The notes under the pieces: generated by a model | Seen by the model: only the letters and a program-made list of their open reading frames with translations | Database searches by the model: none | What the model was told of the DNA's origin: nothing | Part shown: positions 43,058-58,000 of the stretch, in pieces | How positions within the stretch are numbered: the stretch's first letter is position 1 | How the letters are laid out: each line of letters starts with the position of its first letter | NCBI GenBank assembly: GCA_963575645.1 | Contig: OY754465.1 | Span: 34,173,501-34,237,500, forward strand | Source of the DNA: Xanthostigma xanthostigma | Lineage: Eukaryota; Arthropoda; Insecta; Raphidioptera; Raphidiidae | DNA: 64,000 bases | Reading direction: 5' to 3' | Program-made: the position numbers and the translations under genes

Positions 43058-46000
43058 TCAGTTCCAAGTATCTGTAGGGAAATTGTTAACCTCTGCTTGC
43101 TCTTGTATAGGCGAACCGCTTATTGTATATGATACTTTTATTCTCATTCTAAGATTTGACTGAAAGCAGACATTTATTTCGTCAGAAAACAGACTATATA
43201 TAATATACTGAGTGCGGCAAAAGTTTGGAAACGGTCCGATATTTCCGGAGGGTTAGGTTTGCGAAAAAAAAGTTTGGTATAAAAGTTGATTGGTTTTCAG
43301 TTTGCAATCGTTTGGTCACTGAATCATCCCCCAACCCCTCACCCCCCACGTGGGGGTGAGGGTGACTTTGAAATTTCAAATCGCGACCCCAATTTTCTTT
43401 CGCGGATTCGGGTTCAGAGAGCAAAATTAGGCAACTTTTGTTCGAAAAATTTTCCGGCCAAAAGTCTCTCTCTGAACCCGAATCCGCGATTTGAAATTTC
43501 AAAGTCACCCTCACCCCCACGTGGGGGTGAGGGGTTGGGGGATAATTCAGTGACCAAACGATTTCAAACTGAAAACCAATCAACTTTTATACCAAACTTT
43601 TTTTTCGCAAACCTAACCCTCCGGAAATATCGGCCCGTTTCCAAACTTTTGCCGCACCCAGTATATAATCTATAAAGAAAACACCAATATTAAAACTATT
43701 AGGCTTAAGGGTGCAAAGATTTAAGCAGCACTTTCAATCTCGAAGAATAGAGGAGTGTTCTTTAAATATGAAACTATGGCATAAACAGTTAATTTCGGAC
43801 GTTAGAAGTCCATCGGCTGGTACGTTTCAAAAGACAGATCGGCATTTATACTTTGTTTATACTTTCAAGTGACACGTAAACCTGTACACCTATGCAGAAA
43901 AATGTATCTTACTAGTTTACAGTCCAGTCAAAACGACCCGAAAAAAAATTGTTCTATTTGAAAGTTGCCTTGGGGCTCCAGCGCCCCTTATACCCAGGAC
44001 AGAGACGCCTCTGAATCAAACTGACAGACAAGTCTCTGTCCGTTTTTTCGAAGTAATTCCTTGGTTATTCAAACAATATATTAACATGGAGTATATCTCT
44101 CTTTATCAAAAGTTCTTGGCCTTTATCGTACTACTGCGATTTTCATAATATATTCAGTACATTCAGGTAGTTGATCCGAGATATTCACGTGTCTAATAAT
44201 TTTTGAAAAGCTTTTGAATGGTACCAAATTTGGCACCTCAACCTCATCACCCGGGGGGGAAGAGGGGGGTAACATAAAAAAGTTAAATGGGAATCCTTAT
44301 ATTTTATAGCAAATTCGAATCCCTTGCATCAAAATACGTAAGTTTTGCCCGAAACAGTTTTTCAAATTTCGTAAAAATAGGAATCCACAAACAAAAGATT
44401 AATAATAAATAATAAATTGGAAATATACCTTGTTTGGATTAGTTACTTTCATTACTTGTGTTATTTGTCCTGTGGGTGGAATGATTACGCCAGATGGCGA
44501 CATCATTTGTAATTGGAATGTCTGAAAAAAATAAATAAATAAAATAAATACGATTTACTAAAAAAATATTATCGACATTGTAAATTATAGACTCTCAACA
44601 ACAGAAGTCATTAATGTCTTAGAAATATTACTGTACCTTGGGCACAGCCGCTTGGAATAAGAAATCAGTAATTGGTTCCATCGTATTATTTGTAGCAGCC
44701 ATATTCACAAGAACAGTCTCGGACTCATCGGTTTTCTCTAACGAGAAAGTTATTTTCAAACCTGCTTTATCAAACGCAGTTATACTAGGTAAATCTATTA
44801 CTGTAAAAAAAAAAAAAACAACTAAAGGTTTAATCACTTATTTTAAATGTTACCATTCACTACAAGTACAGTACAGACTCGATACCTAATCAGTTTAATA
44901 GTCTGGATTCTTTGGTTATTCGTTCGGACAGTCTCTTGACAGTACTTTGTAATCCGGATATTATGTATATGTTGACATTGTTTGTGTTGATCCTGTCGGC
45001 CGGCGGTATGTTACAATCAGGTATTATTTTTAAGCAGTGATAGAATACAGAGAAAACGCACTATGGCGCCTCACAAAATGACCACGCCATCATTGCAAGT
45101 AAAAAACGACATTCTTAAGCAATTAAAAAAAAAAGTTCCAAATATTAAGCAAACTAAAAATTACAGATTTTAAGCATCAATATGATATTATATTGTTTTG
45201 TAAATAATTATTAATATTAGGTACTCAAAGTAATCCGAATTTTTTAATAATCTGGATCACCTGTGTTTTAATTAGCCCAGATTATCGAGTCTGTACAGCA
45301 CTAATTTAGTTAAAAATTCACTTTTTGCAATTTTACTATATTTAATGTTTTTGAAAAAAGTCGCTCTTCTGGTCAAATACTAAGTATATCAAAACCAAAT
45401 TCTGGCAAGATGTTAATGTAAATGAGAACAGCCCAATTGTTTCTAGAGAAAAAAGGCACATGCGAGGAAGCGATATGTGCTATAACTTTGTTTTTTTCAA
45501 TAAATAAAATTATCGACCAATTTTTCAGACAATATATTAACAAAAAATATCAATAATACATTTAACGTTTCGATCCGGATTTGGATCTTCTTAAAAAAAT
45601 TATTTACGAATTACATTAAAAATAAATAGAAACTAATTATTATTTTTTTATATTTTTAGATCCGTTCTGAAGAAGATCCAAATCCGGATCGAAACGTTAA
45701 ATGTATTATTGATATTTTTTGTTAATATATTGTCTGAAAAATTGGTCGATAATTTTATTTATTGAAGAGTTCTAATCAGACGTTAATCAAAGATTTGTTT
45801 TTTTCAATTACAACAGTACACTTTTCACGACTTAAATAAATTATTGCGCGTCAACGAATAGTTCAATCCAAATCTTCTTGGTTTCCGGGCTTGTATGCCA
45901 TGGTCCATTGGTATTACCAATGGATCACGGCATACAAGCCCGGAAACTAAGAAGATTTGGATCAACACCGGCCGTGAAGCCTACACACTTGAATAGTTCA

Positions 46001-55000: not shown

Positions 55001-58000
55001 GAATCAACAGCATAGCGTCAATATATGACGTCATTATCACTTGCCAGTATACTGGGTTATATTTCGGAACACACCCATGAACTGAGCCTATTCAACAAAA
55101 CTTACAGTCGATGTAAATCAAACAGAGAAATTTAATATATATATAGTCAATATGCTGGTTGAAATCAAACGCACTGTAATAATTATATAGCTGAGCTATG
55201 TAGAAAAGAGATACAAACTGGCGGTTACACGCCCCATTCTCTCTCACCTTGTCGCGATGACCAGTTCTCTCTGTCTATCCTGAACAGAGTATCAATCGAA
55301 AATGGAGTAGTCGTAAGTGTTACTATTAGATAATTTTGAACAGTGCGTATTATTCGGCATTGGGCATCCCATAGAAGCCAAAAGAAGAAAGTGGAACAGT
55401 CGTTGTAAGATATCTTTCAATAAGATGAGAGGGCGGAATAGTCAACTGTAATTGGCTGGCTATAGGTCGCGTCACTTTATGCGTAAAATTACATTATAAA
55501 TTACACACTGGGAATTTTCAAATTTCACATGATTCGGAAAAAAATGTATAGCCTACTTTGGTATAAATATTGCCAAAGTTGATTACAAAATTAGAAGAAC
55601 AGAGTGAAATGATAACCTGTAGCTATATTCTGTAGTCTTATATGTTTTCATTAAAATGCTATTTTATAAAATATGAAATATAAAAGTGAACAGAAAGATA
55701 TTTCCAATATTCTTGGGTTTCATACACAAATATTAAAAAAACAGAACCGTTATTGTGCAATTTGGTTGTCTATTTGTCTGTTACAGCTGATTTTTTGAAA
55801 GGTATAGACAAAGAGATTAGAAAGAAGGCCGAACTCCCAGGTCTAAGTTGTGAGAAAATACATTGGTATACCAGGCGACGCTATGGGTGTATTCGAACGT
55901 GCGCGGAAGATCATTTACGCAGGTTCGAGGACGCTCGCATCGCCACCCGGTATGCCCCCGTTTTTCTATCAGGCAGCTGATGTTTAAAGCATGACAGTTC
56001 GTTTCTCTCATCTCTTTGGGTATAAATTATAGACAATTTACGTAACTGGATCCGAAACTCATTACATAAGTCAAATTTTCTCAAGTCAAACTGACGTTGA
56101 TGACCTCAGCTGTTGAGCGTCTATAATTCACAATCTCTCTCTATCTCTCAAGTCAAACCCACCCTCTCAATTTAACATAGAAAAATGCAATTGCATTTAA
56201 AATAGAATCAAAACTAAAATTAAAAAATAGGTTTTTTCTTATGACTGCAGAATATGGCCAAAAGGCTAATATCGATATGGAGTGATTGTTTTAAAATACA
56301 TATAAACAAAAGCCTGCACTACACCATGTACACAGTGTAAAGCCATGCTTGCACACCCCAATTAGTCAAAATTCACCGGGAGAAACACAAAAAAAAATTT
56401 TTACGTGATACAAAATGATTATAAATTTTAACGAACGCCAAAAATGGCGTACCTCGCTCTGCTCGTCGTCCTGCTGATTGTCCAATGTTTAAAACAAAAA
56501 CAACTCATTAGTCTCTTTATAACATTCAATTACGTATCTTTTAAGGGTTGTGTTTGAATAGCGGATTAGGGATAGCATTACAATTCAGACCCGGACAAGA
56601 CCGGTGCCTTATGAGATCGCCAAAAACTAAAAAAAAGCTTTCTTTTTTGAATGTTAAATCTCTGAAAAAAATTTCGCAAGTGATGAAATGCCAAACTTGT
56701 TAGTCGTACCGGAAACATTTAAATATACCTACCGCGAAAGTACGGGACTTGTTTTTGATTGATAAGCTAAGGATGTTTAAAGTTTAATAACCCATATTTT
56801 TCAAATTTAAAAAGTGCGCGTTACTTTTGTTAATGAAAATGATTTATGATAAAATTATGCGGGATACAAGGCTAAATATAAAAACAATTTTTATTCACTA
56901 GAACATCATTTAATCGTCAACGTTTCGGCATAAATTCATGCCTTCTTCAAGACATATAACAAATAAGTAAAACCCTACACATCTAAACCATAAACTTGAA
57001 ATAAAAAAAAATAAAAAAAAAAATTATAAACATTTGTATTTCAAATAAATACTTAAATTTTTTTTTCTTTAATTTTAAGTTTATGGTTTAGATGTGTAGG
57101 GTTTGTTATAGGTCCTGAAGAAGACATGAATATCTGCCGAAACGTTGACGATTAAATGATGTTCTAGTGAATAAAAATTGTTTTTATATTTAGCCTTGTA
57201 TCCCGCATAATTTTATCATACCATAATATCAAGGTGTCTTATTTTATTTTGTTGAAAATGATTTATGTTCACGATTATTGTAACAGTTCTAATAATTTGT
57301 TTTTTGCATATAGGTATCTGTATAACATAAAATTTTACAAAATTCGGTTCTATAAAATAAATTATTTGTGACTAATCTCACTTCTGTTTCAATCTTATTC
57401 ATAGCACTAATCAAAAGTGCAACACGAATATAGCAAGTCCTGTTGAATTTACCTAATTAAGTGAATGTCGTCCGAGTGGTAAATAAAAAAAAGACAGTCA
57501 ATGCATTTAAAAAAATAAAAATTAACAGACACCCTTTCAGCATAGGCCAAAAACAAATGCACTAATAATCTTAGAAATCAGTTGCTTTAGTGTTAAAAAA
57601 AAAAAAACAAAAACAATCTCACACTTAACTCACTCGATGTGCCCATGCTATTTTGTTTTGATTTGTTTTTTTAATTCTAAAACGTATACACACACACTGT
57701 TGACTGACTAACTGGTGGTTATCTAGCATTTCTAAAAACCCTACAAATCATTTCACTTAAATGCACGAAGTAATGTAATTAAAATAAAACACTTACTTTC
57801 TTGAAGTGGTTCAAAGTGTCGGGACTGTTCTCGCACATTTCCGTGATCAAAGTTACGCCAGTTATTAAAACGCCTGTAAAACAAAATAATCTGAATCACT
57901 GAAAGACATTGAATGAAAAAAAGCAAATTCTATTTTTTCATCAAAATATGTTATAATAAAAAAAATCCCTCTATTGGGCGACAGGACCACTCAAACTTAA

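What the first reader, a model, noticed from the sequence alone, without database searches (positions are those of the whole stretch)
45487..57230. Hammerhead-like RNA motif with covarying stem in three unrelated repeat pairs
At 45,667-45,698 (+), 49,124-49,093 (-), 56,949-56,919 (-) and 57,115-57,146 (+) the pattern (C)TGAAGA-N-[5-bp stem]-[6-nt loop]-[stem]-GAAACGTT recurs. The stems are GATCC/GGATC, GCTGT/ACAGC and GGCAT/ATGCC: different bases, same pairing, same lengths, while the flanking CTGAAGA and GAAACGTT stay fixed. This covariation indicates selection on RNA structure. Penelope-like elements are known to carry hammerhead ribozymes. Here position 7 is A, and one extra nucleotide sits between the CTGAnGA core and stem II, so either these are variants or activity is lost.
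Basis: partly seen in the sequence, partly recalled or inferred. Interest (0 to 1): 0.8.

Follow-up and report, generated by a model that had tools for sequence, protein, structure and literature searches.

The report
Penelope retroelement hammerhead motifs, inverted copies
The repeated RNA motif is the small hammerhead-ribozyme motif already known from Penelope-like retrotransposons, here inside three short inverted insertions whose ends hint at a rule of how these jumping genes insert: two joined copies, of which nearly always exactly one carries a short extra tail.

Summary
The motif is real and abundant: 6,989 exact genome copies against 0 for the reversed pattern. It is the minimal, stem-III-less type I hammerhead of Penelope-like elements (PLEs). 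In this genome it lies beside frames with RT and GIY-YIG domains, and stems I and II covary between families. A7 is no deviation (position 7 is N); the extra nucleotide before stem II recurs across families. So the ribozyme is a known kind; self-cleavage is untested, and Rfam gives no hammerhead hit.

The three repeat pairs are single insertions between exact 15-bp target duplications. Each joins two 5'-truncated copies head to head; right arms end 92-106 nt after the ribozyme cut site, left arms 62-70 nt. Genome-wide, 53 of 54 scored pairs have exactly one tail; so do 37 of 42 pairs read from search listings (2 two-tail, 3 unresolved). The held papers call the tail optional. I infer that both cut target strands prime reverse transcription, from different start sites. 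That rule is the most interesting result.

The parts
45487..45501 (.). Element 1, left target-site duplication (15 bp, TTTGTTTTTTTCAAT)
   Evidence: exact direct repeat with 45794-45808
45502..45597 (-). Element 1, left arm: PLE 3' end without tail (62 nt from ribozyme cut site to duplication), 5' truncated at the ribozyme core
   Evidence: inverted repeat I3; ends by TSD; tail absent by homology
45564..45595 (-). Element 1, hammerhead motif, CTG lost at the 5' truncation
45667..45698 (+). Element 1, hammerhead motif CTGAAGA-A-GATCC-AAATCC-GGATC-GAAACGTT; expected cut after GUU at 45698; stem I only 2 bp in this copy
45699..45760 (+). Element 1, right arm, sequence shared by both arms up to the no-tail end
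45761..45793 (+). Element 1, tail (33 nt), present on this arm only
   Evidence: 95 vs 62 nt from cut site to duplication; tail score 31 vs 6
45794..45808 (.). Element 1, right target-site duplication
49011..49025 (.). Element 2, left target-site duplication (15 bp, CATATACTTTATAAT)
   Evidence: exact direct repeat with 49245-49259
49026..49124 (-). Element 2, left arm without tail (67 nt from cut site to duplication), with hammerhead motif at 49093-49124 (CTGAAGA-T-GCTGT-AATATA-ACAGC-GAAACGTT; family stem I GTAT/ATAC is cut by the junction here)
49128..49219 (+). Element 2, right arm, 5' truncated inside stem II (no CTGAAGA)
49220..49244 (+). Element 2, tail (25 nt), this arm only
   Evidence: 92 vs 67 nt; tail score 27 vs 6
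49245..49259 (.). Element 2, right target-site duplication
56834..56848 (.). Element 3, left target-site duplication (15 bp, TGAAAATGATTTATG)
   Evidence: exact direct repeat with 57253-57267
56849..57016 (-). Element 3, left arm without tail (70 nt), hammerhead motif at 56919-56950 with intact stem II GGCAT/ATGCC, stem I GTC/GAC
57058..57216 (+). Element 3, right arm, hammerhead motif at 57115-57146 (stem II 3 of 5 pairs), stem I GTC 57112-57114 / GAC 57147-57149
57217..57252 (+). Element 3, tail (36 nt), this arm only
   Evidence: 106 vs 70 nt; tail score 32 vs 7
57253..57267 (.). Element 3, right target-site duplication

Best explanation
The motif is the minimal type I hammerhead of Penelope-like retrotransposons: a short stem I (2-5 bp), CUGANGA, one extra nucleotide, stem II, GAAA, then the self-complementary AACGUU in place of stem III. 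In a PLE it lies at the start of the coding unit, shortly before the places where reverse transcription starts. Each repeat pair in the window is one truncated PLE insertion. Shown: each is flanked by a 15-bp target duplication, consists of two 5'-truncated copies head to head, and has a tail on exactly one arm. Inferred: the GIY-YIG enzyme cuts both target strands with 3' overhangs of about 12-15 nt. Each free 3' end primes reverse transcription of PLE RNA, one from the distal start site (tail) and one from the proximal site (no tail). The two cDNAs break off at arbitrary points and are joined head to head. In the copies seen here the ribozyme is a passenger, close to the start sites, so it is often kept even in short copies. 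Whether it cleaves, probably as a dimer through AACGUU, is inferred from published PLE ribozymes.
For: Genome copy number 6,989 exact, control 0; a second form CTGATGATG...GAAACG 799+858, control 0 and 1. PLEs in the genome: tandem units about 3,043 bp apart with an 888-aa frame and a hammerhead just upstream of it (L189); two further frames with RVT_1 and GIY-YIG domains. Endonuclease-like coding sequence upstream of the motif in copies of families 1 and 2 (L002, L144). Stem I and stem II covariation with permutation control; G-U pairs in family 1 stems. Exact 15-bp duplications for the three window pairs. One tail per pair: 53 of 54; 37 of 42 in listings. 5' ends differ from pair to pair in 49 of 49 measured, with the tail arm longer in 19, the other in 20, within 3 nt in 10. 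Target flanks look alike on both sides. The published Anolis PLE protein cuts and extends both strands, has two start sites about one tail apart, and an HHR with stems I and II (PMC11167929, parts 1-2 of 4 read).
Against: No Rfam hammerhead match in the three element stretches at E<=10, in the whole window at gathering score, or in nine genome loci at gathering score. Several window copies have damaged stems (57115 stem II 3 of 5; element 1 stem I 2 bp; element 2 stem I lost). Two two-tail pairs exist (L248, L249). A few arms end before the usual no-tail site (L135 at about 50 nt, L215 at about 40). Some insertions may be one-sided: L195 without tail, L218 with tail and a 15-bp duplication but no recognised second arm. 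The published in vitro work saw no strand difference in start site. Partner arms were each other's nearest or tied relative for only 14 of 36 arms, so one source RNA per insertion is only suggestive.
Confidence: 0.88

Rival explanations
1. The head-to-head pairs arise by self-priming: a cDNA (or antisense RNA) folds back and is copied on itself, as proposed for rotifer PLEs.
For: Proposed in PMC3846280 from palindromic junctions (passages). One pair, L248, has two tails and inverted flanking DNA, as fold-back copying predicts; L249 also has two tails and a palindromic centre by my reading.
Against: Copying one arm from the other should copy the tail and target too. 53 of 54 scored pairs have a tail on one arm only, and 42 of these pairs have a direct, not inverted, target duplication of 10-18 bp with at most one mismatch. 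The arms have different 5' ends in 39 of 49 pairs.
Confidence: 0.1
2. The short pairs are MITE-like DNA transposons with terminal inverted repeats, copied as units by a transposase.
For: Short, inverted-repeat ends, target duplications.
Against: The 49 measured pairs each have their own pair of 5' ends, so they are independent events; target duplications vary from 10 to 18 bp with 33 of 42 at 12-15; arms can run into PLE coding sequence.
Confidence: 0.03
3. The motif is a non-autonomous retrozyme (tandem circular-RNA element with a canonical type I hammerhead).
For: Type I hammerhead in short repeats of an animal-type genome; a few same-strand neighbours exist (2 ++ and 2 -- among 59 neighbour pairs).
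Against: The window copies are inverted, not tandem; the ribozyme has no stem III; the 3' ends match published PLE start sites, and PLE frames with the same kind of motif are present.
Confidence: 0.03
4. The pairing reflects DNA-level inverted repeats (for example a protein-binding palindrome), not an RNA structure.
For: The window copies lie in inverted repeats; no cleavage assay.
Against: Stem II lies within one arm, not between arms; the fixed letters are hammerhead core letters; G-U pairs are common in family 1; stem I, on both sides of the motif, covaries too.
Confidence: 0.04

Closest known systems
Minimal type I hammerhead ribozymes of Penelope-like elements (Cervera and de la Pena 2014; Lunse, Weinberg and Breaker 2017; both seen only as references and as described in passages of PMC6155905, PMC7761336, PMC6466107)
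   Same: Hammerhead core, stems I and II, no stem III, thousands of dispersed copies, position in PLE pseudo-LTRs, activity expected as dimers
   Different: Nothing shown to differ in kind; these are further members. Whether the one extra nucleotide before stem II was described for PLE ribozymes I could not read; [quoted passage not shown]
PAc / Poseidon of Anolis carolinensis (PMC11167929, parts 1-2 of 4 read)
   Same: RT plus GIY-YIG ORF, tandem copies, ribozyme at the start of the ORF, two reverse-transcription start sites about one tail apart, both target strands cut and extended
   Different: In vitro no difference in start site between strands was seen; here genomic pairs use one site per side in nearly all scored cases
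Adineta vaga Penelope families (PMC3846280, passages read)
   Same: Inverted pLTRs, most often head to head; optional 31-bp tail at one of the inverted pLTRs; one inverted pLTR 37 bp shorter
   Different: Target duplications 8-10 bp in the cases read there, mostly 12-15 here; self-priming proposed there; a strict one-tail rule is not stated in the passages read
Metazoan retrozymes (PMC7229834, abstract, outline and first part of the results read)
   Same: Type I hammerheads in short animal repeats
   Different: Tandem units, canonical ribozymes; not the layout seen here

Membership tests
Hammerhead ribozyme (type I) | CUGANGA and GAAA core in order | tested here: met
Hammerhead ribozyme (type I) | Stem II between the two core blocks | tested here: met
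   one nucleotide after CTGANGA; covariation above permutation; 57115 copy 3 of 5 pairs
Hammerhead ribozyme (type I) | Stem I closing the outer ends | tested here: met
   GTAT/ATAC, TTGC/GCAA, ATATA/TATAT, GGTC/GGCC by family; weak or lost in window elements 1 and 2
Hammerhead ribozyme (type I) | Stem III and loop in one molecule | tested here: not met
   GAAACGTT runs straight to the cut triplet; only a dimer through AACGUU could form it (sequence). Published PLE hammerheads share this lack (passages).
Hammerhead ribozyme (type I) | NUH cleavage triplet | tested here: met
   GUU at 45696-45698, 57144-57146 and in the minus-strand copies
Hammerhead ribozyme (type I) | Match to Rfam hammerhead models | tested here: not met
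   no hammerhead hit
Hammerhead ribozyme (type I) | Self-cleavage | not testable with these tools
   needs transcripts
Penelope-like element | ORF with reverse transcriptase and GIY-YIG endonuclease linked to the motif | tested here: met
   L190 RVT_1 6.6e-11 and GIY-YIG 2.2e-5; L191 likewise; L189 GIY-YIG 0.00023, just under the cut-off, RVT_1 not hit; a motif beside the frame in L189 and L190, none found in L191. The window holds no match to these three frames.
Penelope-like element | Tandem copies / pseudo-LTRs | tested here: met
   L189: identical motifs 3,043 bp apart and repeated frame
Penelope-like element | Tail and target-site duplication | tested here: met
MITE | Copies of one unit with the same interior | tested here: not met
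   49 of 49 pairs have distinct 5' ends
Metazoan retrozyme | Tandem 170-400-nt units with canonical hammerhead | tested here: not met
   54 of 59 same-family neighbours are head to head, 4 same-strand, 1 tail to tail; no stem III

The most novel reading that the evidence does not exclude
A PLE insertion is usually two-sided: the enzyme, probably as a dimer, opens the target with a 12-15-nt stagger, and both 3' ends prime cDNA from RNA of the same family. The two start sites, about 33 nt apart in family 1, are each used once per event, one per side. This 'one tail per insertion' rule would explain the old puzzle of head-to-head inverted pLTRs and of the 'optional' tail. The neighbouring ribozyme, thought to work as a dimer, may be what holds two RNAs in the complex; that last step is speculation.
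Probability: 0.5. Interest if true: 0.72.

Novelty: new member of a known kind. Interest (0 to 1): 0.5.

Why it matters
The ribozyme itself is a known kind. [quoted passage not shown] The held papers offer self-priming, or a scheme with both strands extended whose later steps are unproven. A near-strict one-tail rule over several families gives a sharp, checkable prediction for the purified enzyme and for surveys of other animal genomes.

Tried and rejected
Rfam searches of the three element stretches at E<=10 returned no hammerhead; the strongest hits were long-hairpin microRNA models far below their cut-offs, which I put down to the inverted repeats. A search with the L166 copy could not test the tail, because the hits end mostly at 192-196, which looks like that copy's own no-tail end. 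Distances between arms were meant to show one or two template RNAs per insertion; the result is blurred: median 0.061 within pairs against 0.105 overall, partner nearest or tied for 14 of 36 arms (the shorter windows looked cleaner for some pairs). The two-tail pairs C7:2294492/2294677 (L248) and C11:16969950/16970087 (L249, only 77-78% like its query) are kept as exceptions; the first has inverted flanking DNA. Rejected: A7 as a deviation; MITE; retrozyme.

Dropped rows: duplicate loci covering one place (L007, L133, L139, L134, L136, L137, L141, L143) and L129 (the window's own element 2) were left out. Arms that do not reach 48 nt past the cut were not scored there, so pairs with one such arm (for example L193, L199, L204, L215, L231) are not among the 54. 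39 arms have no scored same-family partner. Three of these (L207, L216, outer arm of L247) gained a partner through the duplication search and then show one tail; L195 looks one-sided without tail; L218 has a tail and a 15-bp duplication but no recognised second arm. In the listings, the nested C4:43169486 was left out, and the far-apart inverted pair of the L165 element itself was not counted. The script rule counted C8:41518979 as one-tail although its short arm stops at query base 70, well before the no-tail end; I count it here as unresolved. C9:1136927 was unclear by length and is counted as one-tail after reading L250, where I see no tail letters on the left arm. C2:58215866 and C8:13380566 stay unresolved.
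Full report
Observation. The four places given do hold the pattern: three exact, one with a single mismatch. With up to three mismatches there are 11 matches in the window against a mean of 2.82 in shuffles, none of 100 shuffles reaching 11. The genome that holds the window (623 Mb, 28 contigs, unnamed) has 3,497 + 3,492 exact matches; the pattern read backwards has none. The related form CTGATGATG-N(6-20)-GAAACG has 799 + 858 matches, control 0 and 1. The three stems are as described, but the copy at 57115 keeps only 3 of 5 stem pairs.

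What the motif is. The letters are the hammerhead core: CUGANGA, stem II, GAAA, and a GUU triplet. Position 7 is any base in that consensus (CUGAnGA in PMC10085705, passages). One extra A or T stands between CTGANGA and stem II in the window copies and in the well-paired families seen. [quoted passage not shown] CTGAAG-ATG...GUU in element 2 counts 26 nt from the A of ATG to the last U, so I infer the same layout. There is no stem III: GAAACGUU leads straight to the cut, and AACGUU is self-complementary, as expected for ribozymes that work as dimers.

Covariation. I collected CTGANGA...GAAAC stretches (8-23 nt between) in the fetched loci of this genome without asking for stems: 76 distinct instances in 15 rough families, including some that look like chance or re-splits of one family. 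With one extra nucleotide, stem II pairs in 45 of 60 positions (mean of permuted strands 30.9; 0 of 20,000 as high); stem I pairs in 41 of 60 (mean 23.4; 0 of 20,000). Leaving out three families taken as re-splits: stem II 37 of 48 (mean 25.1; fraction 0.00015), stem I 35 of 48 (mean 17.8; 0 of 20,000). The register without the extra nucleotide pairs less well at the first stem II position (3 against 11 of 15 families). Examples of stem I: GTAT/ATAC (family 2), TTGC/GCAA, ATATA/TATAT, GGTC/GGCC. Against: no Rfam hammerhead is hit in the whole window at gathering score, in the three element stretches at E<=10 or in nine genome loci at gathering score.

Link to Penelope-like elements. GIY-YIG matches in the genome (149, from 150 scored of 521 candidates) led to long frames. 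L189 holds tandem units about 3,043 bp apart, an 888-aa frame, and the motif GGTC-CTGATGATGAAAATATATTTTTCGAAACGTT-GGCC just upstream of it. Pfam finds RVT_1 and GIY-YIG in L190 and L191; in L189 only GIY-YIG, just under its cut-off. No motif of this form was found in the L191 stretch. Endonuclease-like sequence lies upstream of the motif in a family 1 copy (L002) and a family 2 copy (L144). The window itself shows no match to the three frames by tblastn at E<=1e-3.

The three repeat pairs. Each has an exact 15-bp duplication at its ends: 45487-45501/45794-45808, 49011-49025/49245-49259, 56834-56848/57253-57267. Two 5'-truncated copies meet head to head. From the ribozyme cut to the duplication the left arms measure 62, 67 and 70 nt, the right arms 95, 92 and 106 nt. 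The difference is the 'tail' known from PLEs (31 bp in a rotifer, an optional 30-40 bp in Drosophila). The published Anolis enzyme starts reverse transcription at two sites that bound that tail, and it cuts and extends both target strands.

One tail per insertion. I scored the tail by sequence similarity, independent of the duplications. Among 54 adjacent same-family pairs in head-to-head order, 53 have exactly one tail, none has two, and one (L203) has none by score, its arms measuring 78 and 64 nt. The tail is on the left in 22 and on the right in 31. Arms broken before 48 nt past the cut were not scored. Of 59 same-family neighbours, 54 are head to head, 4 same-strand, 1 tail to tail. In 42 one-tail pairs with a resolved duplication (10-18 bp with at most one mismatch, 33 of 42 at 12-15), the no-tail arm measures 62-77 nt and the tail arm 90-115 nt. 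The pairs of 5' ends differ in 49 of 49, so these are separate events; the tail arm reaches further in 19, the other in 20, within 3 nt in 10. Less regular cases: L135 and L215 have an arm that ends earlier than the usual no-tail site (about 50 and 40 nt), and L195 and L218 may be one-sided.

Replication from listings alone. These were read by hand from capped lists (40 scored candidates each) that favour tailed copies, so pairs without any tail could be missed; the contig 1 sample does not have that bias. Family 3: 22 pairs; 20 one-tail (one of them, C9, after reading L250), one two-tail (C7, L248), one unresolved (C8:41518979); a nested locus was left out. L165-type: 17 pairs; 14 one-tail, one two-tail (C11, L249), two unresolved. 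L189-type: 3 of 3 one-tail. Together 37 of 42. In L248 the DNA beyond the two tails is itself inverted, which is what copying an arm on itself would give: the exception carries the mark of the rival route.

Mechanism. Self-priming, proposed for rotifer PLEs (PMC3846280), should copy tail and target into both arms; that is seen in one clear case. Two-sided target priming explains direct duplications, head-to-head order, unrelated truncation points and, with two start sites, one tail. Why the two sites are used once each is unknown; the in vitro study saw no strand difference. Target flanks look alike on both sides (A at -3 and -2 in 23 and 23 of 42, T at +2 and +3 in 28 and 26 of 42), so the target sequence does not obviously decide which side gets the tail. 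Arms of a pair often share family variants by eye, but the partner is the nearest or tied relative for only 14 of 36 arms, so one RNA per insertion is not shown.

Known or new. That PLEs carry minimal hammerheads, lacking stem III and possibly acting as dimers, is in print (PMC6155905 and PMC7761336, passages; Lunse 2017 seen only as a reference). [quoted passage not shown] A strict one-tail rule was not seen in what searches of the open-licence library listed or in the passages read; subscription papers are mostly not held.

Noticed in passing
40609-40664 and 5727-5772: Two further solo fragments of the family 1 3' end with tail (96% and 91% identity to the end of element 1), without ribozyme.
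   Followed up: no
43195-43674: A 152-bp inverted pair (96% complementary, 176 nt apart) with G-rich repeats, not matched by the PLE queries.
   Followed up: no
45866-45962: A 48-bp inverted pair (94% complementary) with 1 nt between the arms, about 60 bp after element 1.
   Followed up: no
48059-48433 (-): Adaptin N-terminal domain exon (Pfam 7.5e-34); elements 1 and 2 lie a few kb or less from it, probably in introns of this minus-strand gene.
   Followed up: partly
25031-29779 (-): An uninterrupted 1,582-aa ferlin-type frame (C2, FerB, Ferlin_C, dsrm_Ferlin).
   Followed up: partly
L248 (G000:C7:2294400-2294860): A two-tail pair whose flanking DNA is itself inverted, as if copied by fold-back.
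   Followed up: partly
L190, L169: A PLE family whose ribozyme reads GAAACTAG instead of GAAACGTT, with intact stem II but no clear stem I in this register.
   Followed up: no
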